A program made the position numbers and the translations under genes. The notes under the pieces were generated by a model. That model had not been told where the DNA came from. It did not search any database and saw nothing but the letters and a program-made list of their open reading frames with translations. From Paramacrobiotus metropolitanus (lineage: Eukaryota; Tardigrada; Eutardigrada; Parachela; Macrobiotidae): a stretch of 64,000 nucleotides of DNA. This document shows, one piece after another, positions 6,057 through 39,498 of this stretch. Location of the stretch: NCBI RefSeq assembly GCF_019649055.1, contig NW_026570360.1, positions 1 through 64,000 of the forward strand. The letters are read 5' to 3'. The stretch's first letter is position 1; each line of letters opens with the position of its first letter.

Positions 6057-7529
6057 TTAAGACGCTTTGTTCTCTGTCAGCCAAATCCTTTTTGCTTGCT
6101 GTGTTCTTATTTGAAGAAAAGAGTCAGCAAGCTTTATCCATTGCAGTAGAGGAGGAATAATGGTTTTATGCCCGCTATTTTTCTGAATATTACAACATAC
6201 ACATAGTAAGCATTTACTACAGCTAAAATTAAGTCAGTATAGTAGTAACTTGTTTTTATTTTATGTCCACATGATTGACCGATGCTTGCCTGCACAAATA
6301 CTGATTAAAACCATAAATAGTTGTAAAAAAATCTGCATAAACCAACTATTTCATGTATAAACCAACTAAATCAACCATTTCACTATAGGGAAATTACGTA
6401 GCCGTGCATAAGTTTAAGGTTATCCACTCTGCTTCAAAACATGTAGTGCGTAAGGAGTAAGTAAGCAGCTTTACAACGATTTGATTATGTTATAATCGGA
6501 ACAGCTATGCGCGTGCCAGTGTACGGAACCAACGACAAAAAATTTTTGCTCTAACTAACATGAGATTAAGTAAACTTAGTAAAGTAAGTATTAACGTATT
6601 AAGTAAACTTCATTAGATTGCAATCTAAGTTTCTGATTTATGGGCGTTTATGCAGAGTATTATCACATGTGTTGCACTAACGATATAGAACTATTACACA
6701 AGCAGGTATTTCCAAATTTCCACTATTCGTTCCATTGCACAACAGTTGCTGATGTTGTTCTCATATGATATTATTCAGTCCCCAGTTTCAATTTCACAAA
6801 AGCCAATAATTTAATACTCTGATCTATTTCAGCCAACTCAATAGGCAGAAGAACCATTGCGTACTTGTTGTATCTTGTTGTAAGATAATTTAGATGTTCA
6901 AATTTTAGGTAGATAATTGATCACCTGAAACCTGCTGGCTATTTATTTAAGTATCGAAAATTTGCGTTTTAAATATTAGCATTAGAGTAATTATTTAACA
7001 GTATCCGAGAAACCGGTCATTTTCGCAAGTGAAAATCATGCAAAAATAAGTGTGTTTTTCTTGTTAGCTCATTAATCTAATGGCCTGAATGTTTTCCACT
7101 GAAATCTGGATATAACTGAAATCTTGCGTTATTTGCCAGCCTTACTTTTAGATAGCAGCAACATGTACGCGCCGAAGCAGAAGTATTTGTTACTCGAACG
7201 ATCGCAGTTGATTGTTCTGAAACACAGTCTGGATCATCCAGGATTGCGTTGTGAGACAGTGAGAGCGCATAACGGAATTGTGTATATTTGGTTAAGCTGA
7301 GGAAATTGAGTCCAGATGAACTGGCCTGTCCGTGCGAGAGCAAATTGAATTTCGCTCTACCGAAGGAAATGGTCGCTGCACCATCCCTTCAACGGCTTCC
7401 ATTAAGCCCTGCAGTTCGATATACAGATATCCGCCGAATAGCCTTTGTCCCAACACTGACACCGCATACTATAGTGGCGTGTAATTCAAATCGTTTCTGC
7501 TTTTTGTTGTTAGGTTTACCCAGCTTAAA

Positions 7530-17629: not shown

Positions 17630-20600
17630 TTAGGCACAATGGATCAGGAAGGGACTGCCGGGTATGTGATCATCGCCGTATTTAACAATCAAAAGGTATT
17701 CTCCACGTTCACGCAGCATATAACTGACTTGATAGGAATCATGACCGACGTGCTTAACATGTACTTCCTCTGCTGGTTTCTCTTTACCATAAACACCAAC
17801 CAGCAAAACGTTATGACCTGAAAAACAATGAACAGTCAATGTAAATGGGTTTACGAAAACAACTTTACAAAACTATGATATTCGCAGTGGTTCTAGTACA
17901 TACCAGCAGTTTCGGCTTTTACATTGAATGTATTCTGCTTATTCTGATAGGCCTTCTCCAGACCAGGCCCTTGGCGGTGACCTTAGAGGCATCGGAGCGT
18001 CCATGTAAGCCGCTACTCAAACTCTGCACTTTAGTGGCAGTTTCCGATTTTGTCACTGTTTCGACGACGACGGAGTTTGTCTGCTTGAACTGACTGGGTT
18101 GTTGTTGAACAACGCTTCCAGCACGCCCTTTTCCTGTAACAAATCACTGATCAATAACTGTTCTGATAACTGCGTAAATTTTCTTTTTTTTAAAAAAATA
18201 TAACCGTACCCATCCGTCAAATCCCGTTTGTAAAATTACGTTTTTCGATGCGAAGCATAAGGTACGCACAGCAAAATTCTGCACAAAAATAAAATTAATT
18301 ATATATATGTACCGGAAGCTGTGACACGGAAAGGACTGCCGGCAATGTGAGCGTTGTTGTATTTGACGGCGATAAAGTAATCTCCTGGCGCTAATGGAGT
18401 ATAACGGATTTTGTATCCTTCGTCCACTTCCGAACAATCCATACTAACTTTGCTTGGTCCATCAATAGTGACCTAAATAATAAACGTAAATACCTAGACA
18501 TCCTCTATATCGTGTAAATAATAACAGTCGCACTTTAACAGTCGCACTTACAGCCAGAGTTCCAGCACCAGCTTTTGACGTGTTGACAACGAATTCTGCT
18601 TTTTCTCCAGTTTGTACACTTTCCAATCCCTTTCCGTACGCAATAACTTGAGCGGGATCTGCCTCTTCTTTACCGACACGCACTCGGAACGGCGATCCTC
18701 GAATTTGAGCACCATTGTATTTGACATGGACAAAGTAAACACCCGCTTCGTATGGCATAAATCGAACGGCATAAACGCCTGTGACGCAAAGAAAACAAGT
18801 ATTAGATCAATATCCAGTAATCCACTCATGGCCGCGCTGTCCGTCTCTTACCGTCATCGACTGGAGTAATGACACAGTCTTCCTCTTTACCATTGGGATT
18901 TACCACGGAGGCGGTCAGTTTGCCTTTAACACCGTGCATGTTGACGGTAAAGGCCACGGGTTTTTGTGGCTGGAGGTTTTGTTGCATGGAACCGACTTCA
19001 ATCCGCTTAGCTTCTCCCACCGAAGGGGCAACGTGCACCTTATAGGGACTGTCCGGTATGTGGACATCATTGTATTTTATGGCGATAGCATATTCACCTG
19101 TCAGAAATCAAGCAAGCTGTCTAAACAAATGTGCAAATAAAACCAACCATCACCAGAAAAACTAATACGTCACATTGTTTATCACATATCTACGTAATCC
19201 TCACTGCATTTAACCTGCTCAAAATTATTTTGGTGAATTAGAAAACCCGATTCATTGATTCCACAGGTATTCTTACTGTATTCATTCTTCCGCTTTAATT
19301 ATGTAGCAGCCATACCAAAACTGGCCTGATACCAATTTATCGTACAATATTTTTCATAATTATTTTAACAATATTTTCTATACCTGGTTGGTCGACTTTG
19401 TAGGAAACATAGCATGATCCGTCCTTATGGTCTTTAAAGTTGATAGCCGCTTTAGAAGGGCCTTCCACGGCAATGCTAAGATTGCCCGCTCCGGCTTCGC
19501 GCGTCCACACATTGAAATCATTTTGTTCCCCCACTTCACCACGTTCCAGACCCGGTCCACCGGCACGCACCCTGTGCGGCCCACCATCCTTCAGTGGCCC
19601 CACCGTAAACTGGAAGGGCGATCCGGGAATATGCATGCTCTTGTGCTTCACACTGATGGTATGCACTCCCATCTCGGTAGGGACAAAGCGGACTTTGTAC
19701 GTCGAATCATTTAAATCAACCAACTCGGCATCTTCCGTCTTTCCACTCGGGCTGGTCACCTGCGCTTTCATATCAAAAGGATCCGATCCTGGAAATCGGA
19801 TATGATGTGTTTCAGAATATTCGCGCATTTTTTAGTTACTCAAAAAACGATCGGGAGCTCAATCATACCAGGCAGTTTGAGCTGCAGTTCACAATTAGCG
19901 CCAACATGCGAGGTCTGGATGGTCTGCGCCGTATGGGTGATCTTCTCCATCTGGATGCGCGCTCCTTCTCCCGTCACTTTGACGGGGAACGGGCTTCCTG
20001 TCAGCACAAGAGGAGTCGCATTAATCAATCAATAAGCAGGCAAAAATCGATTTCAAAGCTAGCCTTAACCAAATAATACTCGTTAGCGCTACGGATTATG
20101 AGTCCATATACCACCACCGAATAATATCCAGTTTCTTTAACTCAAAGGATTTCCCAACAATACGTTCGGATATCAACAGCCAAATCATTTCCAGACGTAC
20201 GCACCTGGTATGTTTTGATCGGCAAAACGGACATTCAGGGTGTAGTTGCCGGGTTCGGTTGGTTTGTAGCCCACTTTCAGTGTGCCATCCGGACCGTCCG
20301 TGCACTGGATATCCGCTTTGCTTGGTCTATAATACAGGCATAATTATTACCGAGTTTAAACGGACCTCTCGACAGGGTTCATAATTTCAGTTTTAATTTT
20401 CTGTATGTTTTTCTTATTATTCTAATTATTCCATATCGTGTGCGGTATTGTGTTACTTGTGCTACTACTTACCCTTCGATAGATACGCTCAATCCTCCAT
20501 AGCCTAAGAAAAAACAAAAAATGCATACAGGAAAACAAGACTGGCAAAAATTTTATTACCGGCTTGCTTCGTATCGACAATAAATTCGTTCAAGACTTGA

Positions 20601-21949
20601 GTCTTTCCTTCCTTGACAGCGTTCCCGCTGACCTTCACACGGCTAGCATTGCCTACTTCCTTGTCACCAACTTGCACTTTAAAAGGAGATCCTTGGATCG
20701 GTTTGCCATTGCGGGTAACAATAACCTGGTGTTCACCGATCTCACGGGGCGTAAATGAGATTCCTACAACGGTAACTCGTAATGCAACGTAAATCATAAT
20801 TGCTCTGACCTTTCACTAACACTGAACACAAACTTGACACTTACCAAGATGTCCATTGGGCAAAAGCTTAAGCATGCACGGTTCTTCCAAACCACTCGGC
20901 GTTTTAATTGTAGCTGCAACGAACCAAATAAATCACCTGAGCCACAAAGGACCGAGTTTTCATATATAAAAATACGAGTATTATACAAAGTACTTACCCA
21001 GTAAATTTCGCACATCGGTCTCATGCACCATCAAGGAGATTTCGCTGGCGGTTCCCACCGAAATCTGATTGGTTCGCTTGCCAGCTCCTGTAACGTGAGC
21101 GGTGAATGGGCTACCCATAATGTGTTTATCCGCGAATTTGACAATGATTTTATATTCGCCAGGCAAGACAGGTAAGTACGAGACATTGCAAGTGCCGTCT
21201 TTGTTATCAGTGCAAGTAATATCAGCTTTGCTCGGTCTGCAAAAAATTAATATTTTAATTACAGTCTGGACGTCTCATGAACATTTTATTAGCATACCCT
21301 TCCACGGCTACGGAAAGTCCACCTAAAAAAACAACGCTTTTCGTCAACAAACAGGCTTACAATTCTGTATCCCATGGAGCAGATAAAACCAAGAGCAAAT
21401 GAAATCTACTAACGCAATGCAGATCTGTGCGTAACTGCGTATGTAATTAACCGGGAGGCGATGTACCCATACGCATTTCCATTACGTAGCGCACATATCA
21501 CATATGTACTAATTGGTTAATTTTCTCCAAAACAAACGCACCATGTCATATTTACTGTTACATAACTGCTGAATGTTTATCTGACATTTGGAAAGGTTAC
21601 AAATGCCACACCACTGACACCAGTACTAAAACAATCTTCCAGGCCAAAGATCATTTCGAGAATTTGAATGCTTACTAACCTGATCCCGCGTCCCGTGTGT
21701 TGATGGTGAAGTGGCTGGGCTCACCGGCATTGCCATGTGTCAGACCCGGTCCGTAAGCCGTCACATTGCCGGTTTCAATTTGGTCAACAAAAAACTTAAA
21801 CGGACTGCCATGCACGTGTTGGTTAGCGTATTTAACATGCATTTCATGCTGACCAGCCTCCGTAGGCTGATAACGAACTGTCACTGTACCATCTTTATTG
21901 TCGACTAATTCGGGTTGAGCCTGTTTTCCGGACGGCATGATTACAAGGC
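17630..21949 (-). other. filamin rod 2 and dimerisation repeat (Ig16-Ig24), with micro-exons
   Basis: Exons: 21680-21949, 21298-21322 (25 bp), 20998-21236, 20845-20913, 20560-20763, 20473-20503 (31 bp), 20205-20326, 19869-19997, 19384-19788, 18852-19097, 18552-18778, 18313-18472, 17904-18133 and 17630-17817. They encode the receptor-binding Ig16-21 region ([27 protein letters not shown]), Ig22, Ig23 and, after a linker, Ig24 (the dimer contact). The two micro-exons code for GGLSVAVEG and [10 protein letters not shown], the same structural strand in two different repeats. Confidence 0.9.
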
Positions 21950-24900
21950 CTGTTGCAGAACAACACAACCCCATTAATTCACTTTCGCTACCATAAGAAG
22001 AAATTCGTTCACGCACCAGATAAGGAACCACCACCCGACGGGATCTGAATATTTTTCAGTTCAAGAGCGCGATATTTGCGAGTAGTCGTACGCTCAACAG
22101 TTCTCTGGGTGATGATTTCCTCAGTTGTAGCCTGCGAATTGAAAATAACGCTGATTTACCGGGAAAGTCGTAAACAAAGCTCCTAGCCAGAAATGTAATC
22201 CACAGAAGTATAATTTGAACAGTATGTCAAAGCAGTGATATTATTTTAAATCCAATTATAACCACACATGTCCAGCTGACTTTCGAAAGGGCAACGAGAA
22301 GTGATAAAAAATCAATTTCCAGGTAGGACCTCACAATTACGGCATCTAACAACGTTTCTAACGTATCAATTTCCCCTGATAGAAATTCACGGCTTCACAT
22401 CTAACTCACCTCCGATGAGAGCTAATTAGCATATGCTAACGCGAAGAGATTGTAAATTCTAAAAAGCTCTTAACTAGCCCTGCTAAGATGTCTTCTGTTG
22501 TGCCTTCCGACTCGGAAGACGGCCGATGACGGAAAGCGGTATCGGAACGCTCTTACGACAAGTTATCCCCAACAGTTATCTCAGGCCAAAAAAATTTACT
22601 GTAAAAATCTTGTCTAATTGGTGGCGTAGTCTATAGTGGGAGTTGGCAGTCGTTACATGTGGCCATATATGTACGTCCATGTGTAGAAAAATGTGCTCTA
22701 ACTGTCAATCCTAACATAGTCCACATGTGTCTGGCTAACACTGTTGCCTTCCAGTTGATACAATTCCCTTGCAATCCTACCCAATTTATTTTTATCTAAC
22801 GGACTTACGGAATGACACATCTCTAACAAAACGAAGAAGCGGTGATGCTACTGTCGACAGTGACTGTCCACTGTGAGACGCACTTAACCACGAATCATAT
22901 CAAAACTCAAAATATCGTAGTAATGAGATCTCCCTAGCGCAGTGCAAAAACTATCACTGTGCCGCTCATGAACGACATATTTGTGGGCTTGCGCAAATTT
23001 TGCAATGGCATAATAATTATGATTTACTGCAGAATGGAGGAAGATAATAGTGCGAGGGGATATGAGCACACGACTGACGCCACTACCAGAACACTCAGCC
23101 CCAAAATGATTTTACGCATGAGACAGCTTATAGCGCGCAAAAAGGCTCTGGTCATTAAAATTGTAAAATATTCAGCTAGTGCAGTATCAGTCGGGGCTAA
23201 AAAGTTACTGTTGGAAAAAAAAACAGCGCACATACGACTTGTGTGATAAAACAGGCACTCACATTCATTTTACTATGCAAAACAAAACATACGCACCAAA
23301 AAAAGGCGCTCCCATTAAATCAGTAGAAAATATTGTATTCTATTAGGTTTTTTATTTCGCTGAATGTACATTAGAAAACTTCCAAAGCTTAAAAAATGTG
23401 CCCTCTCTCATTATACGGTTACACAAGATCGGTGGTAGAGTGCTTACCTTGACCTTGAACGTGCCTCCTGGAACAGGCTGCCCGCCGAACTTGATATTGA
23501 TGGTATAATCGCCCTGTTGTTTCATGGTGTAAAACAGACTAATCGTGCCATCGCCATTATCCTGAATATCCACAGCGAAATCTTGACCCTCCCCGGTCAC
23601 TTTACACGTCACATTGCCCACACCAGCTTGCATTGTGTTAACAGTGATGCGGTACTCTTGGTTAATCACAACTTGTTCATGCACACCCTCCAGAATCTTG
23701 ACTTTCGACGCATCGCCGGTCGGGTAGGTCTTAATCTGGAACGGCGCCCCTTTCACCGGTTCATTGCCGTACATAACGTTGACATTGTACGTTCCCAAAT
23801 CATCCGGCACATATCGCACTTTGTACGTCCCATCGTTCATATCTTCGATCTGCGTTTTCACCGGCCGACCATCCGGTCCCGCGATGTTCACCCGGAGGTC
23901 ACCGTAGCCGGCTTCGCGAGTGTCCACGATAAACTCTGTCGGCATACTGGCCGGAATACCGGATTTATTGACACCGGGCCCGCTGACCACCACTTTCTGC
24001 GGCTCGCATGTGGGTAAGACGCGGGTCTGGAAAGGACTGCCTGGGATGTCCTTGCCTCCGTGGGTCACACGGACCTTGCAGTTGGATCCTTCGGGTGGCG
24101 GGAGATAGCTGACGTCGAAGGTGCCATCACCGTTGTCGTACACCTCTGGGCGCTTGCCAGCTGGTCCACGATCCGACGTAACGTCCACGGCAACCGGAGC
24201 GCGCCCGGATTTCGTTGCATCGATCTTGAAATTGGCTGGAACATTGGCACGCACTTTGTTCGGTTCCACGCCGGGTCCATAAGCTCGCACGCGACTCGAA
24301 TCCACGGGGTTGTCGATGTGCACTTTGAAGGGGCTGCCAGGAATATGTTTATCAGCGAACTTGATGGTGATGTCGTATTCTCCGGCTTCCGTAGCTGTGT
24401 AGTCAACGAGGCATGTACCATCGCGGTTATCCTGAAACACGGTACCAAGTTCGAAAAATATTATAAACTATACATCAGCAACAGTGAACTTCGGCATACC
24501 TTGCAAGTCATGCGAGCCTCAGATGGTCCCTGAAAATCGAAATACGAAGCTGAAATGTTGCTAGATATTTTCAAGTTTAATTTTCGCTTTCTACCTCAAT
24601 GGCCAAAGCCAAACCTCCGGTTCCGGCTCCTTTGGTTTCAACGGTGAACTGATTGGTGATATGCGTGTAACCGCCCTGTAAACCTGGTCCATACGCTTTG
24701 CACTTTGTGTGGTCCGATCCACGAACGGCATTGACTTTAAAGGGACTTCCCGGTACAGGAATTCCTTCGTACGTGATTTCCAGCGTATGTTTTCCTGTAT
24801 TCATAAAACGAATGGAAAATCACATTTCACAGCAAATCATATTTCGTTTTTATAGAATTGTAGTAGTATAGTGTTTCTGTGATAGTATTCTGGCAATTTT

Positions 24901-27900
24901 AATACCGCTGTAGGACGCACCTTCTTCAAAAACACTGTAATCTACAGTGTATGTTCCATCGTGTTTGTTAGACACCAGCGCCTCTGTGCGGATGCCACTC
25001 GGACTGGTAACGATGACCTTCACTTTGCCTTCTCCATTTCTAGTCACACTGCGCGCATCAACTGTGAACTCCGTCATAGAATCCAAGAATGCTCCTTGAG
25101 AAAAAGAATATTTATGTCACAATGATTAAATTACCAAAAGTGCGCACCAACAACCGCGGTAATACGATACGAAGCAGATGGCAAGCAGCAGCAACAAGCG
25201 AAACATTAGCAACACCAAAAGCGGCATCACCATCACCACAACAAGCAGACCGCCACCAATACCCTGCGTTCCCGGGCCGTGAACTTTTACGCCCGACACA
25301 TCCGGCCCGGCTAATGGACCGCCCTTAGGAACAACTTGAGCTTTAAATGGGGTTCCATTAACGGGCTGCCCGGCGAATGTCACATTCAGATCATAAAGGC
25401 CGGGCTCCACTGGGTGGTACACAACATCCACAGTGCCATCTTTATTGTCCACCGTCTCGATTTTTGCTTCCTAAAATAGACAAACAACTTCATGAATTTC
25501 CGTTTCCAAAACAGAAGATCTGCATTAGAGCCTAGAGATATAACTTCGATCCATTCCATGTCTTCTAATCTATTTAGCTATTTCTGATCTAAATTACACT
25601 GTGCAATGACTACCCGTAGTACTGCACTAGTCAATAACTATTTCATGATCCGCAAGACCGCTCGGTATTATTCGCTGCTTTTAAATCACTTTTTGTTGTT
25701 GTGTAATTGTAAAATTATACAACAATGAATTATAAATTACAATCTCAATTTCGAATCATCCACTAACATTTTTATAATTCAGAAGTATTTTTCTAAAACT
25801 ACGTCAACTAAGTCATCCACATCTGGCTTCTTAGTAGTTCTTACCGCTGGCCCATTAATACCCAAACCAACCGGTGCAACCCCAGCTTTCCGGCTGTCGA
25901 TGCGGAATTTGGCGGGTACACCCACTTCACCGTGATTGAGTCCCGGACCCTCCACTTTCACCTTTGATGGGTCTGGTGTAGGACTAACGGTGAATTTCTG
26001 TGGTTGATGGGGAATTGGTTGACCTCCGACCGTAACTGCCAACTGATTCTCCCCCACTTCCGTTGGCACAAAGTCAGCCATCACAGCTTTTCCATCTGGG
26101 GTAGGCGTCAAACGCACTGGTATCTTCTTTCCTGTGGCAGATGTTATTTCGGCCACTGTTTCCTGAACCTCCAGATGAGGATGCTTGCTATCCGTTGTAG
26201 CGATTTTTATTTGTTGTCGCGAATGGATAGGCATTACTGCAGAGCATATATTCACATCAGCAAACAAGCATTTTACTATTAGACTTTCTGAATCCTACCT
26301 TGATCAAGCCCTTCCACCTTGATACCGCTCAGATCGTACGCGCCTCCTTTTGGAGTGACTTTCGCCTTGAAAGGCGCTCCTGGTACAGGCTTTTGGTTGA
26401 ACAGTACGTTTACATCGTAGTTGCCGATGGCAGTCGGCAAATAAGTGACATCGATGGTTCCGTCCTTATTATCCACTGTATTAATTTTAGCTTCCTGCAA
26501 AACGACTCACGTAAATTGCGATAAGTATTACACAAAAAACAGTCCTTTGTAAACAGAGATCACGTTCTTAAAACAGAGAACACCAACCTTGGGGCCATCA
26601 ATAGCAATACCGAGCGGCGCCACTCCCGCCTTTCGTGTGTCGATGCGAAAGGTAGCCGGGACACCGGTTTCTCCGCCTTTCAGGCCAGGTCCGGTGACAA
26701 CAACTTTCGATGTGTCAGGTTGAGGAGACACTTTGAACTTCTGTGGTTGTTTGGGTATGGGCTGATTACCAACTTTTACCAGCAGCTGATTGTCGCCCGC
26801 TTCATTCGGTATGAAATCCACCAGTACGCCCTTTCCGTCCGGTGCCGGGCTGACCTTTACCGGTATCTTCTTCTGTGTAGCGGTCAACACTTCCGCCGTT
26901 ACATCCTTGGCACTCAGAGCCGGGAAGTTTTTATCCGTCGATCCAACTTTAACTTGCTGGCGCGAATTGATTGGCACCGCTACAGGTAGGACATGCAGAC
27001 CCGTTACCAAATTACCGATACCACATGGTTTCTGGATTCACGTAAATACGGACACTTGTTAACGGACCGGGACGATAGACAGATAGTTAGTGTTATCGTG
27101 TGTGGACATGAGATTCCTTGTAGTTCTCCGTGGTGTTAATCACATTCATCAGCCACTTACTCTCTTCCAGACCCTCTGCGGTCAGTGTGCTCACATCAAT
27201 CTTCGACGCGATCTTTGGTTTGAACGGGCTACCAGGTACCGGCTTATCGGCGAAATTCACATTTACCGTATAATCGCCGGCCACAGGCGGCACATAGGTC
27301 ACGTCCACAGTGCCATCTTTATTGTCTACGGTGTCGATCTTAACTTTTTCCGGACCATCCACGGTGACAGCCAACGGTGCCACTCCAGCCTTTCGCGTAT
27401 CAATGCGGAATTTTGCAGGAACACCAGCTTCTCCTGCCGTCACACCTGGTCCTTCCACTTTAACTTTAGATGGATCGGGCGTCGGAGAAACAGTGAATTT
27501 CTGGGGCATCTTGGGAATCGGGGTGTTACTGACTTTAACGGCCAGCTGATTTTCGCCCACCTCTGTAGGAACGAAATCAACCAGAATAGCTTTGCCATCC
27601 GGCGACGGTGTTAACTTCACGGGAACTTTCTTGTTAGCAGCCGTCGTGATTTCCGCTACCACATCTTTGATGTTCAACGGGACTTTTTGATCCGTACTAA
27701 TTACTTTCAGTTGTTGATGAGAATTGACCGGCATAACTATGACAGAAAAAAAAGAAAGACGATTACCATATTTTTTAGCGATACAATACACTCCTAATTA
27801 TAATCAATGATAGGTGAACCTTACTTAGATTCCCGCACACAACAAGCGAAGCCCAGTATTACAAGAGATTATGCGAGAAAGATATTTATAAGTACTTTTT

Positions 27901-30900
27901 TCCCCTTGTTGGTCACATATATCTCGCCCATAAAGAACCGATCAATGACCTTTCTACTCACTATTGTCTAGACCCTCCACTTTTATTCCACTGACATCAA
28001 TCTTGGACGCTATTTTCGGCTTGAAAGGCACTCCTGGTACAGGGCGCTGGTTGAACGTGACGTTCACATCATACTCGCCGGGTGCTGTTGGCAGATAAGT
28101 CACATCAACCGTGCCATCCTTGTTGTCAACAGTGTCGATTTTAACTTCCCCTGCAAGTGCCAAAAAGGCGTCAAGCGTTACGAGACTGACGGATGTAAAC
28201 AGCCGCACTCCCACCTGGCCCGTCTATATTCAGTCCTAGCGGCGCGACACCCGCTTTCCGGGAATCAATCCTGAATTTAGCGGGTACTCCAAGCTCTCCG
28301 CCCGTTAATCCTGGACCACTAACCACCACTTTGGTTGGGTCAGGCAGAGGTGAGACCGCAAACTTCTTCGGAGTCTGTGGTATGGGAGCGCCTTGCACTT
28401 TCACGACCAATTGAGTTTCACCAACTTCCAACGGTACAAAATCAGCCAGAACTCCTTTTCCGTCTGGTGACGGAGTCAGTTTAACCGGAAGTGTTCGCTT
28501 CGACGGCGTGACTATCTCCGCCACCATGTCCTTGACATCCAGCGGTGCAGCCTTCTGATCGGTTTGGATAACTTTGATTTGTTGGCGAGAATTAACAGGC
28601 ACCGCTATAAAACCGATTCTCGTTAAAAATTTACTAATTAGCCGACTGATAATGATTTAATAGACCCACGTACTCTGATCCAATCCCTCAATCTTAACTC
28701 CACTTAAATCAATCTTTGATCCAATATGTGGATGGAACGGCACGCCGGGTACAGGCTTTTGGTTGAACAAAACGTTGACATTGTAGTCACCCGGTGCAAC
28801 CGGCAGATAGGTCACATCTACAGTGCCGTCTTTATTGTCCACAGTTTCAATCTTCGCTTCCGCTAAAACACAAATTAATGATATTACCGATTGCAGGAGA
28901 TAACAACTGGCATGCTAACGCACCTGGTCCGTCAATGTTTAGGGCCAGAGGTGCTACTCCAGCCTTTCGGCTGTCGATGCGGAACTTGGCTGGCACACCG
29001 ACTTCGCCGTTTGTCAAACCTGGACCGCTAACAACCACCTTGCTTGGATCGGGCATGGGAGACACGGCAAACTTCCTGGGTGTCTGCGGAATGGGAACGC
29101 CGCCCACTTTCACGCTGAGAACGTTCTCACCAATTTCAGATGGTATGAAGTCCGCAATAACCGCCCGACCGTCGGGAGTGGGGGTCAATTTGACTGGCAC
29201 ATTGCGTTTTGAAGCGGTAACAATCTCCGCTACGACTTCCTTGACGTCCAAAGGCGGTGCTTTTTGATCGGTTTGAATAATCTGAATTTGCTGGCGCGAA
29301 TTTACAGGTACAGCTAAAAATATCGAAATCAATGTGACGGAAATCAAATCTTTTGATTGCGCTGCTCACTTTGGTCTAATCCCTCGATTTTAATTCCGCT
29401 GACATCGATCTTTGACGCAATCTTTGGCTTGAAGGGGACACCGGGAACAGGTTTATTGTCGAACTTCACATCAACCTTGTATTCTCCCGGTGCAGTTGGG
29501 TGGTATGTGACATCAATTGTTCCATCTTTGTTGTCAACTGTGTCTATCTTCACTTCCGCTGAAATAAAAAAAAACGTATTACCATAAAATACATCCAGAG
29601 CAAATTACTTGAACCTTATATTACCGGGGCCATCAATATTAAGTCCCAGAGGCGCCACACCGGCCTTCCGGCTATCGATCCTAAACTTGGCCGGCACTCC
29701 AACTTCTCCAGTCGTCAGTCCTGGGCCGCTGACTACCACCTTACTAGGATCGGGCTGGGGAGATACTTGGAACTTCTGTGGGGTTTTTGGAATCGGTGCT
29801 CCGCCGACTTTCACATTCAACAGATTCTCTCCAATTTCCGAAGGAACGAAATCCGCAATTACCGTTCGACCATCCGGACCTGGAGTCAGTTTGATAGGCG
29901 CGGTCTTTTTCGAAGCAGTGGTAATATCTGCCGCAATTTCTTTGATGTCCAGCGGTGGGGCCTTCTGATCAGTCTGAATAATCTTGATCTGCTGACGTGA
30001 ATTAACCGGCACAGCTGCAATAATACACCATGTTACCGTTATTTCAATGCCGAATTCGAAAGTACAGTAATGCGAACTCACTCTGGTCCAGTCCTTCAAT
30101 TTTGATGCCGCTAACGTCAATTTTCGAGGCGATTTTGGGCTTAAACGGTACTCCTGGAACTGGTTTCTGGTTAAAGGTAACGTTGACCAAATATTCTCCC
30201 GGTGCAGTGGGATGATAGATGACGTCAACCGTGCCATCTTTATTATCGACCGTATCAATCTTCACTTCAGCTGTATCACAAAATTTTTCACTTTAACATA
30301 AACACGCTCAAAGTTCTTTCTGTAGTTGCCGTGGACACTGGAGATTTTATTTACCTGGACCATCAATATTCAATCCCAGCGGAGCAACACCCGCTTTCCT
30401 GCTGTCGATTCTGAATTTTGCAGGGACGCCTACTTCACCGGCAGTCAGCCCTGGTCCACTAACAACGACTTTGCTTGGATCTGGTTGTGGCGACACTTGG
30501 AATTTCTGTGGGGTCTTTGGAACAGGAGCCCCTCCGACTTTCACGTTCAGCTGATTTTCTCCCACTTCCGAAGGAACAAATTCTGCAATGACGGTTCGGC
30601 CGTCAGGACCCGGAGTTAACTTCACCGGCACAGTTTTCTTAGTCGCGGTGGTAATATCGGATACAATTTCTTTGATATCAAGCGGGGGCGCCTTCTGATC
30701 AGTTTGAATGATTTTGATCTGCTGTCGCGAGTTGACAGGAACCGCTAAAAATAAATACTCATTGATACGCAAAGTTCAGCGGCGACGTCAGAACATAACA
30801 TGTTATCCTTACATTGGTCAAGACCTTCGATTCTGATTCCACTAACATCTATCTTGGAAGTGATTTTTGGTTTGAATGGAACACCAGGCACAGGTTTCTG

Positions 30901-33900
30901 ATTAAAAGTGACGTTCACCAAATATTCGCCGGGCGCGGTTGGGTGATATGTTACGTCGATTGTTCCATCTTTGTTGTCCACCGTATCGATTTTCACTTCC
31001 GCTGGAAAGAAAAAATTACCCGTAAAATTAATTACCCGGTTCCGAAAAAGCGAAAACAAGTACGCTCAGTACGTACTCAGTAGTCTTTAACTTGATTTAA
31101 AAAAATGGAAATTACTGGAACTGTGAAAGTAGTAGATCGTGAATGCCAGCATTCAAGAATTAGGCAAATAATAAAGCAAATTGCGGAATCAACCTACCAG
31201 GTCCATCAATATTCATCCCCAAAGGTGCCACACCAGCTCTGCGAGTATCAATTCTAAACTTAGCAGGAACACCAACTTCTCCGCTGATAAGTCCAGGACC
31301 TTCAACCTTGACCTTTGATGGATCCGGATTTGGAGAAACTTGGAACTTCTGAGGCTGATTAGGAATCACGGCACCTCCGACTTTTACCAACAGCTGATTT
31401 TCACCCAGTTCAGTAGGTACAAAATCTGCTAGAACAGCGCGTCCGTCCGGAGTGGCTGTCAGCGTGACAGGGATTATTTTCTTTGAAGCAGTAGTGATTT
31501 CTGCTATGATGTCTTTGGGATTAAGATTTGGCGCCTTGGAATCAGTCTGCACAATTTTAATCTGCTGCTTGGAATTGATCGGTACGGCTGTAAAAACAAA
31601 AATTATTAACAACGGTAATGAAACATAACGGCAATTACCATACTTTTCTCCAATCCTTCCACTTTTATACTGCTAACATCAATCTTTGAAGTGATCTTGG
31701 GCTTGAACGGCACGCCGGGCACCGGTTTCCCTCCAAAGGTCACATTTACAGCGTACTCTCCAGGAGCTACAGGATGATAAGTAACGTCTATAGTTCCGTC
31801 TTTGTTATCCACAGTGTCGATTTTCACCGGCTGAGGCCCGTCGATAGTGGTATTAACCGGCGCCACTCCCGCCTTCCGGGTGTCGATTCTGAATTTTGCT
31901 GGTTGGCCGGCTTCTCCACCAATCAATCCAGGCCCTTCGCATTTCACTTTGCTCGGGTCGGGATTAGGACTGACGGTAAATCTGTGAGGCATGTTCGGCA
32001 CGACAGCACCACTGACTTTGACCGTCAGCTGATTTTCTCCCAATTCGGTGGGCACGAAATCGGCCAGCACGGTTTTGCCATCTGGGCCCTTAGTTACTTT
32101 AACGGGAATAATTTTCTTCGACGCTGTGATGATTTCTACTGTTGTGTTTTTTTCATCCAGAGTAACGCCATCTTTAGCGGTGGAAATGACCTTTATCTGC
32201 TGCTTGGAATTGACGGGCACAGCTGCAGCATGAACGGAATATTCAGCCGCTGATCCGGATAGGTGAGTTTCCGCGACAGACTGGTTATGGCACATAATCT
32301 GCGCATGCTGCGCATTCCTTAATGGATTGGTTATCGGTCACGGACAAACAGCGTCAATAAACTGGAGTTATCGATGCATTAATAATACCACGTATTTCCA
32401 TAAACCGAAACGTGCTCAATTGTTTGTGGCAGTTTGTGAAATTCAATCGGCGTCAAACAAATGTTAACCAAGTTAACAACAGAGAGTAATAACCATATCA
32501 AGCTGAGCTGAGCAAGCAGAGGCATGCAAGCGATAAGCAGAAGCACATGCAACAGAGAATATCACAGTGAATAGGAAGAACTTACTTGGCTCCAGCCCCT
32601 CCACGCGAATCCCGCTCACGTCAATATGCGGTGCCACTTGGACTTTAATGGGCGACTGCGGAACCTCCTTTCCGGCAAAATGCACGGTCACTTTGTACGT
32701 ACCGGGCGTCGGCGCAGTGTATTCCACGGTAAACGTCCCATCGCGATTGTCGTTGATCTTGAAAGGGACATCCTGCCCTTTCTCGTTTTGCAGCGCAATC
32801 TGGACGTCTCCGGGTCCAGCGTGCGCGCAGTCGACCGTGAAATGAGTGGGCGTTGCCGTGCGCACACCCAGCTCGACTCCAGGGCCATACACACGGACTT
32901 TACCGGGATTTGTCGGTTCTTGCACGAAGACCTATAGAGGCGACAAAACAATATAAGCATCTATGCTTCCAACAAGCATTACATAAACGGCCATAAAATC
33001 TTTGTTAACAACAAACTGTAACAATAGAAGTTTCATTTTCATAAATTTCTCAATACGGCATCTTACCCTGAACGGACTCTTCGGCACACCTACACCGGCG
33101 TAGTGAACCTGCACGGTGTGCTTTACGCTCCGTGTCGCCGTGTACGTGCACTTGTAAGTTCCATCTTGCATATCGCGTACAGTAACATTCACCGGATTGT
33201 AATCAATGTCCATTATGCTGACGTGCAGTGGAGCTCCTCGACCAGCTTCGCGCGTGTCAATAGTAAATTCGGTGGGACGGCCTGTCTGTACGCCTTCAGG
33301 CTCCACACCCGGTCCAAAAACCTTGACCTTGTCGGGATTGACACCAGCCGGCATTTGTGTTATCTGTGCCATGAAAGGGCTGCCGGGGATGTCTTCATCG
33401 TTGACCAGAACATGTACAGCGTACTCTCCGGGCGCCGTGGGCCAGTATTTTACATCCGCTGTTTGATCACCGTTATCCTTGCAGTCGATTTTCGCTTGAC
33501 TGGGGCCCTCAATAGAGAAACCTGAAAAGCATATGGGAACATTGTAGCTCCTATCAATATTATAATCGCGAATCGAATTATCAAATTGTAACCTAGCACA
33601 AAACATAAAAACAAAGGCCGTACCGAGAGGCGCCGTTTCGCCATTCATTTCCACACAGAAATCTGCGGAATGGCCAACAACTCCTCCTTCCAAACCGGGA
33701 CCAAAAGCGCGTACTTTCGAAGTGATGAATTTTCCGACGTTAACTTCGAAGGGAGATTTGGGCACATCCTGACCACCATACTGCACGATGACTGTGTAGC
33801 GTCCGGGAGTTTTTGGATAATATTTATATTCGAAAGTAGTAGCGTCAATCTTCTTCATGTCGAAAGGCTCAGCCACACCACCTGGACCAATGATCTTTAC

Positions 33901-36900
33901 TTCCAGCTTGCCTTCTCCAGCTCCTTCTGTCCAGACCTTGAAATCCGCCACATCTCGAACACGCACACCGTGCTTCTGCAATCCGCGCCCGGTACAACGA
34001 ACTTTTCGAGCGTCGCTGACTGAGAAAAATATCACAAAAAATTGACAAGTTGAAAACAGTAAGCAATATTATTTATCGGCTCTTTTAAGACATTATTTCA
34101 ACTCGACGTAGTAAAAACACAACGAAACTTACCCGGACCAACTTTAACGCCAAATGGACTATTTGGAATTGGCTTGCCAGCAAAGAACACATTTACAGAA
34201 TGGAGACCGAGTTCTTTAGGTGTGTAATCAACCCGCCACACCCCATCTGCTCCTTGTTTCAAAGTAGGCACAACGGTGTCCTTTCGGCCGGCTGGATCCA
34301 TTATGACCACTTCCACCAGCCCATCTCCAGCACCTGCAGCACCGTTTTTATGAACAACTATCCTACTGACGACTCTAGCGACTAAAACAATTCTATTACC
34401 TTTGGTAAACACCTCGAACCAAGTCGGTTTTCCGATTTGATTTCCTGTCGCTTCCAATCCGGGGCCCTTTGCAGTCACCTTGGAAGCATCACCAGCGTAG
34501 CCACGCACATCAACGTCGAACGGGCTCTTTGGCACATCTTTTCCGGCAAACTTCACCGTTACACGATGATGGCCTTCCATTTTGGGCACATACTGGCACG
34601 AATACGTTTTGTTTCGATCGTTGTTGAATTTCACGGTTGACTATAAAAATAACATTTGAGATCAATCAAAACAAATACAGCAAGGGCAGTATTAACCGCC
34701 AAGGCGCCAACGTAGTACCGATGGTACTAACCGCTGTATCGGTATGAGGCTTTATATCAGTTTCGTAAAGCACTAGAGCGATTTAAATGAGGAAGTTTGC
34801 TGTAATCTGCAGTCTGCGATATTTCATATATTACTATTGTGCAATATTTTATAGTCAAACTGTACTGTACTTTGCATCGGCCTAACAATAAGTTCCTCTT
34901 GACAAACGGAATGGTCCGGTAAATATTCGGGCTAGAGCTTGACTTTTTAAACGCGCCAGCTTTCACATTTTTAAGCAGTGACATTGTCGTTTGAAATATT
35001 TACCAGTAGGCTTTGAAGCCGTAGTAATTTACGAAATTGTACTCGTACGGCAATGATTACTACAGCGTAGCTACCACTTCACATACAGTGGTGCATGTAC
35101 AACACATGTACTTAATGTATTGTACTAAAACATTTGTTGATTTCACAGAGGTAATCTACTAAAATTAAATGAAACATCAGGTATAGCCCGTTAAGAGACT
35201 GTTAGTTTCGTACACGGACACTTACAGGCACATTTTGTCCATCTGGACCCAGCACGTCAACTTCCACGGTCCCGGCGCCGGCACTGAAGGTCTCTACAGT
35301 GAATTTGGCCGGCACTCCCACCTTGTTACCGGGCTCCAATCCAGGCCCGTATGCTCGCACACGATTGGGTGCCAGCTTGCCGTGTAATGGTGCTCCGGGG
35401 CGTAGTTTGGCGTTGGGATACTGCGAGAGGTATGTCATCATGGACAATTCATCCACATTGGGATCCACCATCTCTTCGGGTCGGATCAGCTGAGGTACGC
35501 CCAGCCAGTCCTCGGCTAACTTCATTGCTTCTGTGGCGTTGGCCTTGGCATTCTTGGGGCTCCAGTCAGCCCAATCCGGACATAAACCTGTTAAAATTCA
35601 TAATTAAAAAAGATTAAGAAAGCACGCGTTTTCGCGACGAGAACACAGTCACGGTTTTCAACATTCTTTAACCTGGAGCAACAGCATCCACCAAAGCGCC
35701 CACAGCGCGGCCATCATTCCAGTCGGAAGTGAAATTGGTGATAGGCAGATCGGGCACTTTATTTTGGATCCAGCGTAACAAACGCTGTTTGGGTGTGAGA
35801 TCCTTTGCGCCTTCGTCTTCGTCCGCCCACATAGGCATGGAAATCGAATAATGCAAGATGAGCGTCCATATCAATCCGAGAATAAGTTTCAGACGGCCGT
35901 CAACAATATCTGTACTGTCTGCAAATATATGAAGAAACATAAAAGAACGTATATTCAAAGGCTCGAATACCGGTAACTCAATACAGACAAAAAGTAAGAC
36001 GATGTCGACTGAAAACAGCTGATACGTAGGCTGATGCGCTCAAGGGATGAATTTCTATCAATAAGTACTTATATTATTTTTCACAATTAACTGTTTTGCA
36101 TTATTTATTTCAACTGAACTATTTTTGTTTTATATATTTATTTGTTTCTCTGAATAAATAAGAACAGACACTGCAAGTCGTCAGATATGGTGATATAACG
36201 TTAAAATTGGTGCAGTCTTGTAAGATCTGCTCTATTCGTTAGAATAAAACTAATCTTTTAGAATAATTCCCGAAAACAATTGGGGAAAACAAAATACACG
36301 CTTCTGCTCATATTGAACAGGAATTAGTGTCATCTTCTAGTTGTGGGGTTTTGTAACTGCTATTTCTTATATGTAGTCGAGAAAAGTTTTCCAAGATTTG
36401 CAGTTTATAATAACGCACGCGTTCTAACTTTTAATTACCTTGCATAAGCATTCGCCTACGCTACGCAAACGCTGGCAAGATATTCGTTCATTTTGAAATC
36501 TCGCAGCAAATCCCCATGATCGACACAGTCGGCAGTGACTATCTTTATTGATCTACCGCACCACCGTACCAAGTCATCAAATATTTTATTTGCTCCATAT
36601 AGATTATATCTTCGTTTTGACGATACTAATCAATCGATCGAGTTATTTAAGCCATCCCAATCTTTTGCGGCGAATTTCATACTAACAAAAACCTAATCAA
36701 GCATATTGTTACTAGTATATACTGGTGGTATGGCTGGTACGAAGGCACGTTTTAAAAAAGTACTGGATGTTGTTTACTTCAACAAATTTTGAGTTCACAT
36801 TTTAGTTGAGGCCAAATTTTTAATAAAGCAAAAAATCCATACTTAAAACAGAAACTGTAAGCACGAGTATACTGGGCATATGATACGGAAACAGTTCACA

Positions 36901-39498
36901 AAATCCAGGTATCACTACAGTTTACACACTTGCGAGATAACTCCCAGAGACATGCTTTTTTGTTGACGCTGCGATATTTGAATGCATTACGCAAAAATCA
37001 AGCCAGACGACAGCATCTGAAGCATCTTGCAGTGTAAGTATACAACCAAACGATTCACCCACGGTAAAGTTACGATAATCCCTACCACCTAAGTAGTAAG
37101 ACAATCAAAACTCAATGCTGCACTTGCAGTTGAATATTTATTTGTGTAATAGCATGTGTAAGATGTAGCAACATGCATCAAAGACTATGCGTTTCGGAAA
37201 CCGGCTGCTCGAAAGCTGCAAAGACGAATGAACTGGAGATTCCATTTATGGCGAAAGTACGCTTTGAGCAGGTTGTCTTCCGCAACCGCGAATCGTTGTA
37301 CCATCGTTCAGAAAGTTTTCTAGCTGCTTTTCTCATGGTCAGCGCGACTGACAGACAAGTTTCACAAAACGATTTAAATCGCGATTCTTGAACGTTCAAC
37401 GACAGTACAATATCCAAGGAAAATATTCAAGCACAAATGCACAAAACAAGCATATGCAGGCGCTTTGCTATCTGAAAGCCGAACAATAAATAATCACATC
37501 TTAAAATTGCTAGTAAACTCTACAAATTGTAATTCTGGTGTTGCGGAAACTAATAATTGTAAGCATCTGATGCACACATATTTGTTTCAGTAAACCGTCA
37601 AATAAAAAGTGAAAACAGAAGTATTTCATTCCGAAATCACTTACTAAAACAATACAGTACGTTAAGTGTAGTAACCAGTGCAACTTTTATTTGTAAATTG
37701 TTATGTGTTATAACTTGAAAACCTCTTTACGGTTGGTTGCAGGTATGCAGTAAATTATAACGATATTGCGTTTATTAAAGCCATGTCACTGCGTAAAGCG
37801 CATATCTTTGCTTAACGAGGCAGTTTGTTGTGGATCTATCAGAATTACGTTCTCCGACGCGATAAGATAAGGCGACTAATCAGTAAACAGTCAATATATA
37901 AACTGCGACAACACCGCTCATCATTTTGTGTCGTTTTCATAAACAATTTCCGTCTGGAGATCAGACCACTTGCACTGTGACTGAAAGCTTATTAGAATCC
38001 CCTTCCACACGAGTAGTTGCACATGTGATCTTTAACCTCTCAAATGTTTAGAATCAGAAAGAAGCCAGCAAATGCAGTTTATGAAAACCGAAACGATTTC
38101 AAGGACAGAAGAATAACACATTTCTTCAGCTGACCATGCAGTCCAAAAGGTGCTAACAGAATTTAATTCGGCACTTTAGTGCGTTTGTCACACAACGAGC
38201 AAATAGGTAAGTATACGGTATACCTAATGCATTTACTCATCAATGACAGCGGAAGTGATAAGCAATGGTTTCACGGCGGTCAAATGCAAATTCCAATTTG
38301 TGAAACTTTATTTGGTAAAGTTAGATTGGTTTCTTCTGCGTATTATTAATTCATTTGTTTCCGCATGTCTCGCGGAAAACTAACATTAGTCGACAATCGA
38401 CATTAACTTTAACATCGATAAAGACAGTCAAGCAGCTTACGACCAATCCGTCGAGCGTGAAGCTATAAAATTTATGAATGCGATGCTCTGTAGTTGTACA
38501 GTACTGTACCACAATATCCAGCGCGTGCTGGACAAATGCATCTCTGTACTACAATTTTATACATATTTATCCCATAAAATACTGCAAAACCTTACCACAT
38601 CAATATTACTTGTTAAACTTTGTTAAAATTTAAACTGAATACGCACAGTTATTAAACGAAAAAGCTTTCTCGTTTTGTCATTACATTTACCGGCAAAAAA
38701 AGAAGTAAGTACATAATTACATTACTGTACTAAATCCGCATTTACTCTTGAAAGTCTGCCACCAGTCAAGTGTTTTACAAAATGCGAAAATATCAATAAA
38801 TGAACAATCCTCTAGGTAGAAAAGATTAAGGACAAACGTACGGCTGAAGACACTTGTTGCGCTCTCTTAACTCGGGAATATAGCATGTATATAAAATTTT
38901 ATTGTATTCACGCAAAAGCATTTGATAAATTCGTAGCAGATCAGGACTTACCGATATTGACAAGCTTGATGTTTTCGTCTTCCTGTAGAAAAGTTAGGGC
39001 TACCGAGACATTTTCCAGTTTCTGCGACCGGAACGTGGGACGCCTGTTGTGTCTCGGCAATTTCTTCCCGCTCAGTACTTCAATAAGTGCGATTAAGCGT
39101 AATCCATCTGATAAATCCGTTTCAAGATTGCCGATATTCTTGTTAACCGTTTTCAGGTGCTCGTTGGCCCATCGCGTGAAGGTATTTTGCTGGATACGTT
39201 TCCAGGGAGCATCATCAGCTAGGTCGCGCTCAGTGGCCGGCATCTCTTCCTCGCCTCCTTCTGCGCCTGACGGGTTTAATGTTGGCTCACGATCTAATTC
39301 CTCTTGTTGCTGGCGTTGGGATTGCAGCTGCTGTTGCTGTTGCTGTGGTTGTTGTTGTTGCGGAACCTGCGTATTCTGACTGGAACCTGTACCTTGGTTA
39401 CGGTTTAAGTTTATCTGTTGGGGAGGCGGTGGATTGGAAGGCTTTCGGCCAAAGACCGTGCCCCGCTGGTCGAGATTAAGATTTTGTTTATTACTCAT
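17630..39498 (-). CDS. filamin: giant filamin: actin-binding domain plus about 38 Ig repeats
   Basis: Filamin crosslinks actin and anchors membrane receptors. I reconstruct 43 coding exons, all phase-compatible, from ATG 39496-39498 to TAA 17630-17632, about 4,026 residues (vertebrate filamins have about 2,600-2,700). Order: a Gln-rich leader (residues about 25-65), then CH1 and CH2 (about 95-320). Six Ig repeats follow (24 exons numbered from the N-terminus, ending with the array at 25263). Next come nine two-Ig modules (25263-32222), then repeats matching vertebrate Ig11-15, a hinge-1-like linker (22017-22131), repeats matching Ig16-23, a second linker (17904-18133) and the dimerisation repeat (NVLLVGVYG to GSPFLIHCA, 17630-17817). 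Introns are mostly 50-400 bp, but the first is 3,033 bp (35919-38951) and another is 1,316 bp (22132-23447). One base is missing in a G run at 17966-17967; with it the total is exactly divisible by three. A 5' untranslated intron is likely, since an acceptor abuts 39528. Confidence 0.97.
22017..22131 (-). other. filamin hinge-1-like linker exon
   Basis: A 115-bp exon with no Ig motif. It encodes a Thr/Arg-rich stretch ([15 protein letters not shown]) between the Ig15-like and Ig16-like repeats, exactly where vertebrate filamins place hinge 1. It is followed by the N-terminal part of the Ig16-like repeat (IQIPSGGG). A 1.3 kb intron precedes it, long for this gene, so this boundary is a natural place for alternative splicing. 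Confidence 0.75.
23448..25094 (-). other. filamin repeats equivalent to vertebrate Ig11-Ig15
   Basis: Exons 24921-25094, 24595-24794, a 30-bp micro-exon 24500-24529, and the 984-bp exon 23448-24431. Order matches vertebrate Ig11 ([12 protein letters not shown]), Ig12 ([12 protein letters not shown]), Ig13 ([20 protein letters not shown]), Ig14 ([20 protein letters not shown]) and Ig15 ([13 protein letters not shown]). Several repeats fuse into one exon here, in contrast to the finely split regions on either side. Confidence 0.9.
25263..32222 (-). repeat. nine tandem copies of a two-Ig filamin module
   Basis: Each module of about 193 residues has an A repeat starting [11 protein letters not shown], with PVKLTP.PDG and DFVP.E.GENQL, and a B repeat with SKVxVxGPGL, [17 protein letters not shown] and DTVDNKDGT, ending [10 protein letters not shown]. 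Modules, from N- to C-terminus: 31644-32222 (one exon), 31198-31587 + 30813-31001, 30355-30744 + 30082-30270, 29625-30014 + 29370-29558, 28924-29313 + 28674-28862, 28215-28604 + 27962-28150, 27161-27736 (one exon), 26588-26979 + 26299-26494, and 25845-26236 + 25263-25470. Modules 2-6 share exact exon sizes of 390 and 189 bp with phase 1 borders. The block sits where vertebrate filamins have repeats 7-10. Confidence 0.93.
32586..34640 (-). other. filamin Ig repeats 1 (end) to 6
   Basis: Exons 34400-34640, 34133-34333, 33624-34019, 33067-33521 and 32586-32931 encode the rest of repeat 1 through repeat 6. Each repeat shows the GPGL/GPGV strand start, a DGT-type turn and a PxSPF ending (for example [15 protein letters not shown] and [16 protein letters not shown]). 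Two introns here are very short: 66 bp (34334-34399) and 102 bp (33522-33623). The second is free of stops in frame and so looks like coding sequence until the family is compared. Confidence 0.9.
35226..39498 (-). other. filamin actin-binding domain exons (CH1-CH2)
   Basis: Three exons: 38952-39498, 35673-35918 and 35226-35587. The first codes for the leader and most of CH1 ([34 protein letters not shown]), ending in ENIKLVNI. The second starts [19 protein letters not shown], closing CH1, and opens CH2 ([34 protein letters not shown]). The third finishes CH2 ([28 protein letters not shown]) and starts Ig repeat 1 ([15 protein letters not shown]). All hallmark actin-binding segments are present, so this is a functional-looking tandem CH domain. 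Confidence 0.95.

What the first reader, a model, noticed from the sequence alone, without database searches (positions are those of the whole stretch)
25263..32222. Filamin with nine tandem two-Ig modules, about 38 Ig repeats
Aligning my reconstructed exons with the vertebrate repeat order shows that Ig1-6 and Ig11-24 are each present once, while the segment equivalent to Ig7-10 has become nine A+B modules (18 Ig domains). The predicted protein is about 4,026 residues against about 2,650. The count rests on nine A starts ([24 protein letters not shown] four times, [24 protein letters not shown]) and nine matching B segments. A longer rod 1 would change actin-network spacing and the pump's neighbours not at all, so it is a private change of this gene.
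Basis: partly seen in the sequence, partly recalled or inferred. Interest (0 to 1): 0.82.

Follow-up and report, generated by a model that had tools for sequence, protein, structure and literature searches.

The report
Filamin with nine repeated two-domain modules
This animal (probably a tardigrade) has an unusually long version of filamin, a protein that ties actin filaments together: one pair of its building blocks has been copied nine times in a row, and the copies are old and well conserved, so the long form is a lasting design and not a sequencing error.

Summary
A 43-exon model (minus strand 39498-17630) gives 4,026 residues: two CH domains and 38 filamin Ig repeats (Ig1-6, nine A+B modules, Ig11-24). 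A six-frame Pfam search hits 36 of the 38. The unit is not an Ig7-10 block: all nine B repeats are closest to human Ig9, the A repeats to Ig20 or Ig8, and none to Ig7 or Ig10.

"Private change" is not supported. Modules are 60-90% identical in protein, yet their silent codons match almost at chance (mean z 0.35 over 36 pairs); simulated pairs at dS 1 or less always stand out. The array is ancient, under purifying selection, and not an assembly duplicate.

Precedents exist: leech filamin has 35 repeats, and Trichoplax has tandem expansions. This is a new variant of a known kind. Most likely function (inferred): an extended spacer with nine class-A-type ligand faces. The genome also encodes a mini-filamin (CH-CH, Ig3-4-5, Ig11, Ig24). 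No relative could be searched. The organism is inferred to be Paramacrobiotus metropolitanus.

The parts
35379..39498 (-). N-terminal region with the actin-binding domain, CH1 and CH2 (exons 39498-38952, 35918-35673, start of 35587-35226)
   Evidence: PF00307, two stretches; genome search; splice model
32632..35378 (-). Ig1-Ig6, once each
   Evidence: PF00630 six stretches; each best against human Ig1-6 in order (human letters from memory)
31690..32631 (-). module 1 (A1 32631-31966, B1 31965-31690); most of it in one fused 579-nt exon 32222-31644
30859..31689 (-). module 2 (A2 31689-31331, B2 31330-30859), exons 390+189 nt
   Evidence: A2 has no Pfam hit of its own
30128..30858 (-). module 3 (A3 30858-30488, B3 30487-30128), exons 390+189 nt
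29416..30127 (-). module 4 (A4 30127-29758, B4 29757-29416), exons 390+189 nt; 90% identical in protein to module 3
28720..29415 (-). module 5 (A5 29415-29057, B5 29056-28720), exons 390+189 nt
28008..28719 (-). module 6 (A6 28719-28348, B6 28347-28008), exons 390+189 nt
27207..28007 (-). module 7 (A7 28007-27483, B7 27482-27207); fused 576-nt exon 27736-27161
26348..27206 (-). module 8 (A8 27206-26723, B8 26722-26348), exons 392+196 nt
25321..26347 (-). module 9 (A9 26347-25980, B9 25979-25321), exons 392+208 nt, the last running into Ig11
23448..25320 (-). Ig11-Ig15, once each
   Evidence: Ig11, 13, 14, 15 best against their namesakes; Ig12 best against human Ig9 (120.8 bits), then Ig12 (113.7)
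22078..22131 (-). 18-residue linker between Ig15 and Ig16, at the place of hinge 1
   Evidence: splice model; homology to the vertebrate hinge not tested
18314..22077 (-). Ig16-Ig23 (second rod), once each
17630..17999 (-). Ig24, dimerisation repeat; one frame slip near 17970 in this assembly
   Evidence: 108.1 bits to human Ig24

Best explanation
This is the cheerio/FLN-1/FLNA-type filamin of the animal, whose first rod was lengthened by repeated tandem duplication of one two-exon cassette. The cassette encodes an even-type repeat (A, taken as Ig8-like by position) followed by an Ig9-like, class-A-type repeat (B). Nine modules now stand where human filamin has Ig7-Ig10, so rod 1 has 29 Ig repeats and the protein has 38. 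Supported by the sequence: gene model, domain order, the nature of B, and that the modules are old and held by purifying selection. Inferred: the protein works as an ordinary filamin (actin binding at the N-terminus, dimerisation through Ig24, pairs 16-21 unchanged), and the array acts mainly as a long extended spacer. It would hold two actin filaments further apart and present nine class-A-type ligand faces, giving 15 such repeats against 7 in human.
For: 38 repeats and 4,026 residues; PF00630 on 36 of 38. 19 of 20 flanking repeats are best against their human namesakes and 9 of 9 B repeats best against Ig9 (human letters from memory). Among PDB chains with one matched stretch, B4 scores highest against 2di9 (103.1 bits; domain 97.3, against 79.5 for Ig19 and 72.3 for Ig17 among the domain scores printed), titled the 9th filamin domain of human filamin-B. 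Modules are 60-90% identical in protein with pS 0.72-0.85. Identical-codon rate 0.373 against 0.359 expected by chance, mean z 0.35 over 36 pairs; in simulation dS 1 gives mean z 5.2 and dS 3 gives 0.36. All nine A exons start in phase 1, and 5 of 9 modules have exons of exactly 390+189 nt. All 9 A repeats keep a first-strand motif, D.S....EGL, absent from this protein's Ig16, 18 and 20, which argues against a detached A strand. Human FLNc 8-9 was the most extended of 14 two-domain rod-1 fragments by SAXS (PMC4170960, passages). FLNA subgroup A repeats are 4, 9, 12, 17, 19, 21 and 23 (PMC7714767, passages).
Against: A repeats are not clearly Ig8: phmmer puts Ig20 first in 6 of 9 and Ig8 first in 3 of 9; global alignment Ig8 in 5, Ig20 in 4. 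The module could therefore be an even-odd pair like 20-21, and such pairs are compact and self-masked. The AlphaFold model of module 1 is confident within domains (pLDDT 86) but not for the whole (pTM 0.64); the exon modelled lacks A1's own first strand, so the model cannot test strand detachment. No transcript supports the splicing. No relative was available. The array lies on one contig; the overlapping contig C28 reaches only the last 15 bases of module 9. On checking, the phmmer count for A moved against me (6 to 3, not 5 to 4), so I lowered this confidence by 0.02 and raised the mechanosensor rival by 0.02.
Confidence: 0.7

Rival explanations
1. Assembly artefact or very recent duplication: a long-read assembly repeated one or a few modules.
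For: The assembly is noisy: C28:2-9900 duplicates window 25335-15347 with 76 gap openings, and the Ig24 exon has a frame slip.
Against: Silent-site likeness between modules is near chance, where dS 0.25 would give a mean z of 11.7. The best nucleotide identity to the reference copy is 76%. Exon fusions and lengths differ between modules.
Confidence: 0.02
2. A mechanosensor array: each A-B module is an even-odd pair like 18-19 or 20-21, folded compactly with B's ligand face masked until force opens it, so the array reports tension in up to nine steps.
For: A's nearest human repeat is Ig20 in 6 of 9 by phmmer. The class of B and the even-odd order match. Over both domains the module model aligns with 2k7q, FLNA 18-19 (172 residues, Z 14.3, rmsd 7.6).
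Against: All nine A repeats keep a regular first-strand motif. Superposition over both domains is poor (rmsd 7.6 A on 18-19, 13.6 A on 20-21), although pair orientation in the model is unreliable and its first strand is missing. Human FLNc 8-9 is extended (PMC4170960).
Confidence: 0.22
3. An adjustable-length ruler: module exons are skipped in sets, giving filamins with different rod-1 lengths in different tissues.
For: 12 of the 16 array exons are multiples of three, and modules 1-8 each begin and end in the same phase, so whole modules can be skipped in frame. Alternative and truncated filamin isoforms are known in worm and fly (PMC3143143, section 4 part 1 and passages).
Against: Symmetry is what tandem duplication of a symmetric cassette leaves anyway. 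No transcript data here. Two modules have fused exons.
Confidence: 0.15
4. A private, species-level novelty.
For: None beyond the absence of comparison. Worm FLN-1 and fly cheerio have 20 repeats (PMC3143143).
Against: Silent sites are saturated between modules at protein identities from 60 to 90%.
Confidence: 0.06

Closest known systems
Leech (Hirudo medicinalis) filamin, 35 repeats
   Same: Invertebrate filamin with two CH domains and a large lineage-specific expansion of Ig repeats (35 repeats stated in PMC3081291, passages; expansion in PMC8275333, passages).
   Different: The leech expansion is reported as mainly single-domain duplications (PMC8275333). Here the unit is a fixed two-Ig cassette, and the total is 38.
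Trichoplax adhaerens filamin
   Same: Cascade of tandem duplications in the filamin domain array (PMC8275333, passages).
   Different: Another phylum. The unit and number were not compared here; the dataset of that paper spans 5 to 36 domains per protein.
Drosophila cheerio / C. elegans FLN-1
   Same: Same gene type: CH-CH and a second rod of 8 Ig in the same order (PMC3143143, passages).
   Different: They are given 20 Ig, with four repeats fewer than vertebrates in the first rod; here the first rod has 29 Ig. Their sequences were not compared here.
Human filamins A, B and C
   Same: 19 of 20 flanking repeats match one to one (FLNA letters from memory).
   Different: 24 Ig; no repeat here is best against Ig7 or Ig10; one Ig8-Ig9 pair against nine modules.

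Membership tests
Filamin (FLNA/cheerio/FLN-1 type) | N-terminal actin-binding domain of two CH domains | tested here: met
   PF00307 two stretches, 144.5 bits for the piece
Filamin (FLNA/cheerio/FLN-1 type) | Rod of filamin Ig repeats | tested here: met
   PF00630 hits on 36 of 38 repeats
Filamin (FLNA/cheerio/FLN-1 type) | Second rod with Ig16-Ig23 in conserved order | tested here: met
   8 of 8 best against human namesakes (human letters from memory)
Filamin (FLNA/cheerio/FLN-1 type) | C-terminal Ig24-type dimerisation repeat | tested here: met
   108.1 bits to human Ig24, read across one frame slip
Filamin (FLNA/cheerio/FLN-1 type) | Actually dimerises and crosslinks F-actin | not testable with these tools
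   needs protein
Filamin (FLNA/cheerio/FLN-1 type) | Hinge between Ig15 and Ig16 | tested here: inconclusive
   an 18-residue non-Ig stretch is present there; calpain-site homology not tested
Class A (ligand-binding) filamin repeats | Sequence closest to class A repeats (4, 9, 12, 17, 19, 21, 23) | tested here: met
   9 of 9 B repeats best against Ig9; other top-four hits are 12, 17 and 19, with Ig13 among them in B1, B7 and B9's global list; 2di9 best single-stretch chain for B4
Class A (ligand-binding) filamin repeats | Binds integrin/GPIb/migfilin-type peptides on the CD face | not testable with these tools
   needs binding assays
Compact self-masked pair (like 18-19, 20-21) | First strand of the even repeat is detached and covers the CD face of the odd repeat | tested here: inconclusive
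   first-strand motif D.S....EGL kept in 9 of 9 A repeats; the model lacks that strand and its orientation is unreliable

The most novel reading that the evidence does not exclude
The genome holds a graded set of filamin crosslinkers made from the same end parts: a 38-Ig giant whose nine-cassette array is a long-conserved molecular ruler, shortened by in-frame module skipping in some tissues, and a 5-Ig mini-filamin with the same actin-binding and dimerisation ends. Together they set actin-network mesh size, perhaps for the large shape changes of a tardigrade.
Probability: 0.15. Interest if true: 0.7.

Novelty: new variant of a known kind. Interest (0 to 1): 0.45.

Why it matters
An evolved filamin with a first rod of 29 Ig repeats instead of 15, built from one repeated cassette and kept under selection until silent sites were randomised, stands in the same genome as a mini-filamin with the same kind of ends. 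That makes spacer length, and the role of Ig8-Ig9-type pairs, directly testable. It also suggests that domain number in long repeat proteins can stay stable for a long time after an expansion.

Tried and rejected
Assembly duplication: rejected by silent-site saturation. Recent gene conversion between modules: rejected by the same test; only M2/M4 (z 2.48) and M6/M8 (z 2.02) reach 2 among 36 pairs, and only M2/M4 (2.38) if codon usage is taken from the modules. Origin from an Ig7-10 block: rejected, because no array repeat is best against Ig7 or Ig10 (Ig10 appears only among weaker hits of A repeats, Ig7 once in a global list). A control that failed: I first took the C74 paralogue as a younger array that the codon test can see (z 4.5, 2.4, 1.7 for three pairs; one of its four modules had been cut by my pattern and left out). 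With all four modules and C74's own codon usage the signal goes (6 pairs, mean z 0.52, one at 2.3), so it was codon bias, and C74's array also looks old. Power was then shown by simulation. Relatives: viral contigs with module 4 and genome contigs (prokaryotes) with B4 gave no relative, as expected for an animal gene; the cap for metagenome scans is 0, and G000 has no relatives held. Order of duplication: trees of A, B and whole modules have no starred branch (M1+M2 93/93, M3+M4 89/89; the B tree is unresolved). Organism by a lipocalin/SAHS route: the one strong hit on C14 was not searched further. Paper searches listed no report of a 38-repeat or tardigrade filamin array (listings; passages of PMC3459984 name a filamin-A-like fragment in Milnesium). 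Light et al. 2012, the key review, is not held, so I cannot exclude that longer filamins are listed there.
Full report
What is there. The window is the first 64 kb of contig C140 of a 169.8-Mb animal genome in 533 contigs. On the minus strand, a splice model made with a small dynamic-programming gene finder and corrected by hand has 43 exons from 39498 to 17630 and encodes 4,026 residues. The order is CH1-CH2, Ig1-Ig6, nine A+B modules, Ig11-Ig24, 38 Ig repeats in all. Pfam gives two CH domains and six filamin repeats in the first 917 residues, the only part of the spliced protein scanned. The six-frame PF00630 search of the genome, run without my model, covers 36 of the 38 repeats when its 43 hits on this gene are laid on them; A2 and Ig18 are the two without a hit.

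Correction of the domain assignment. Of the 20 flanking repeats, 19 are best against their namesakes. The exception is Ig12, which scores 120.8 bits against human Ig9 and 113.7 against Ig12. All 9 B repeats are best against Ig9. The A repeats are best against Ig20 in 6 and Ig8 in 3 of 9 by phmmer, and against Ig8 in 5 and Ig20 in 4 of 9 by global alignment; their best scores are low (21.9-31.8 bits). By position and neighbour I call A Ig8-like, but that is the weaker assignment. A check from solved structures, with B4 only: among chains with one matched stretch 2di9 scores highest (103.1 bits), and its domain score, 97.3, exceeds those printed for Ig19 (79.5) and Ig17 (72.3); domain scores of other multi-domain chains were not printed. 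Its title is the 9th filamin domain of human filamin-B. No array repeat is best against Ig7 or Ig10, so the unit that multiplied is an even-odd pair of Ig8-Ig9 type.

Gene anatomy of the array. Modules 2-6 each have exons of 390 and 189 nt; modules 1 and 7 carry fused exons of 579 and 576 nt; module 8 has 392+196; module 9 has 392+208, the last exon running into Ig11. Twelve of these 16 exons are multiples of three. This is what repeated tandem duplication of a symmetric two-exon cassette leaves. It also means that modules could be skipped in frame, which no transcript data here test.

Age. Modules are 60-90% identical in protein (M3/M4 90%), but pS is 0.72-0.85 over all 36 pairs. Among codons for the same amino acid, the share of identical codons is 0.373 against 0.359 expected if the two modules chose codons independently: 36 pairs (not independent of each other), z from -1.08 to 2.48, mean 0.35, 34 of 36 below 2; with codon usage from the modules themselves the mean is 0.25. 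So a small excess remains. In a simulation of neutral silent change, dS 0.25, 0.5 and 1 give mean z 11.7, 8.9 and 5.2, dS 2 gives 1.6 and dS 3 gives 0.36: the modules stand at dS of roughly 3. A control that I first trusted, the two-Ig array of the C74 paralogue, failed once its own codon usage was used. The array is therefore ancient and held by purifying selection. I infer, with an assumed silent rate and no fossil or relative, an age of the order of 100 million years or more. Artefact, recent duplication and recent gene conversion do not fit. Invariant columns are 47 of 94 in B and 28 of 103 in A, so B is the more constrained partner.

How it most likely works. The two ends and the second rod are those of an ordinary filamin. 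The array should therefore add length and binding faces to rod 1 without touching actin binding, dimerisation or the pairs 16-21. Rod 1 has 29 repeats. B repeats belong with the class A repeats (FLNA 4, 9, 12, 17, 19, 21, 23; PMC7714767, passages), giving 15 class-A-type repeats (Ig4, nine B, Ig12, 17, 19, 21, 23) against 7 in human. In human FLNc the 8-9 fragment was the most extended of 14 two-domain rod-1 fragments (PMC4170960, passages), and all nine A repeats keep a regular first-strand motif. I therefore favour an extended spacer with open ligand faces. Against it: A is as close to Ig20 as to Ig8 or closer, and even-odd pairs of rod 2 are compact. The AlphaFold model of module 1 (pLDDT 86, pTM 0.64) has the filamin fold (best Z 18.4 to FLNA repeat 21), but it lacks A1's own first strand and does not fix the orientation of the pair.

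Surroundings in the genome. C28:2-9900 repeats window 25335-15347 with 13 mismatches and 76 gap openings, mostly bases missing from C28: a poorly polished overlapping contig end, which reaches only the last 15 bases of module 9. C203 encodes a mini-filamin: CH-CH (64% identical to this gene over 274 columns), Ig3 (42%), Ig4 (56%), Ig5 (41%), Ig11 (47%) and Ig24 (60%); no array was seen, the B-type matches above 25 bits falling on its Ig4, and one B7 match also on its Ig5 (gene-finder model, no transcript). C74 encodes a jitterbug/FLN-2-like filamin with its own alternating two-Ig array (the name rests on my reading of the sequence, no tree was made). C68 holds several 99.3-99.8% identical segments with parts of the 3' portion of a C74-like gene, beside less alike ones.

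Organism. The published Paramacrobiotus sp. TYO assembly is 170,483,395 bp in 684 scaffolds, longest 4,484,941, GC 43.46%, nanopore with Canu (PMC8277472, passages). G000 has 169,799,020 bp in 533 contigs, C1 4,484,719 and C533 10,170 bases, window GC 0.39-0.47, and trehalose-phosphate synthase matches on C67, C208 and C84. I infer the tardigrade Paramacrobiotus metropolitanus; the 222-base difference in the longest contig is unexplained.

Comparison with what is known. Worm FLN-1 and fly cheerio have 20 repeats, four fewer in rod 1 than human (PMC3143143, part of section 4, section 10 and passages). Leech filamin has 35 (PMC3081291, passage). Leech and Trichoplax carry lineage-specific expansions, mainly by single-domain and by tandem duplication respectively, in a dataset of 5-36 domains (PMC8275333, passages). 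Filamin repeat number is said to differ substantially in invertebrates (PMC7714767). So this is a new variant of a known kind, notable for its regular nine-fold cassette, its age and the accompanying mini-filamin. The review that would settle whether longer filamins are already listed (Light et al. 2012) is not held.

Noticed in passing
G000 C203:98032-107827 (L008, L009): Mini-filamin paralogue: two CH domains and, by matches above 25 bits, Ig3, Ig4, Ig5, Ig11 and Ig24 only; one exon (104173-103778) has the same 396-nt length as window exon 34019-33624.
   Followed up: partly
G000 C74:85297-118087 (L002-L004): Second filamin-like gene (jitterbug/FLN-2-like by eye) with an alternating two-Ig array, eight Ig in one 2,185-nt exon; CH hits upstream at 112013 and 117842. 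Its array is also silent-site saturated if its own codon usage is used.
   Followed up: partly
G000 C68:504001-540000 (L005-L007): Several 99.3-99.8% identical segments with parts of the 3' portion of a C74-like filamin gene: recent segmental copies or unmerged alleles.
   Followed up: partly
window 15347-25335 against G000 C28:2-9900 (L001): Contig end C28 duplicates this stretch with 76 gap openings and 13 mismatches, mostly bases missing in C28: unmerged, poorly polished overlap.
   Followed up: yes
window 17970: The filamin frame slips once inside the exon that starts Ig24 in C140, while the overlapping C28 end differs there: probably an assembly error.
   Followed up: partly
window 7485-9647 (+): Frizzled receptor exons (Fz domain and seven-helix region, which scanned 20 of the 24 longest frames listed outside the filamin gene).
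   Followed up: no
   Followed up: no
window 44607-45038 (-): MANEC-domain exon.
   Followed up: no
G000 C203:94978-96384 (L010): A gene that looks by eye like a MORN-repeat protein follows the mini-filamin.
   Followed up: no
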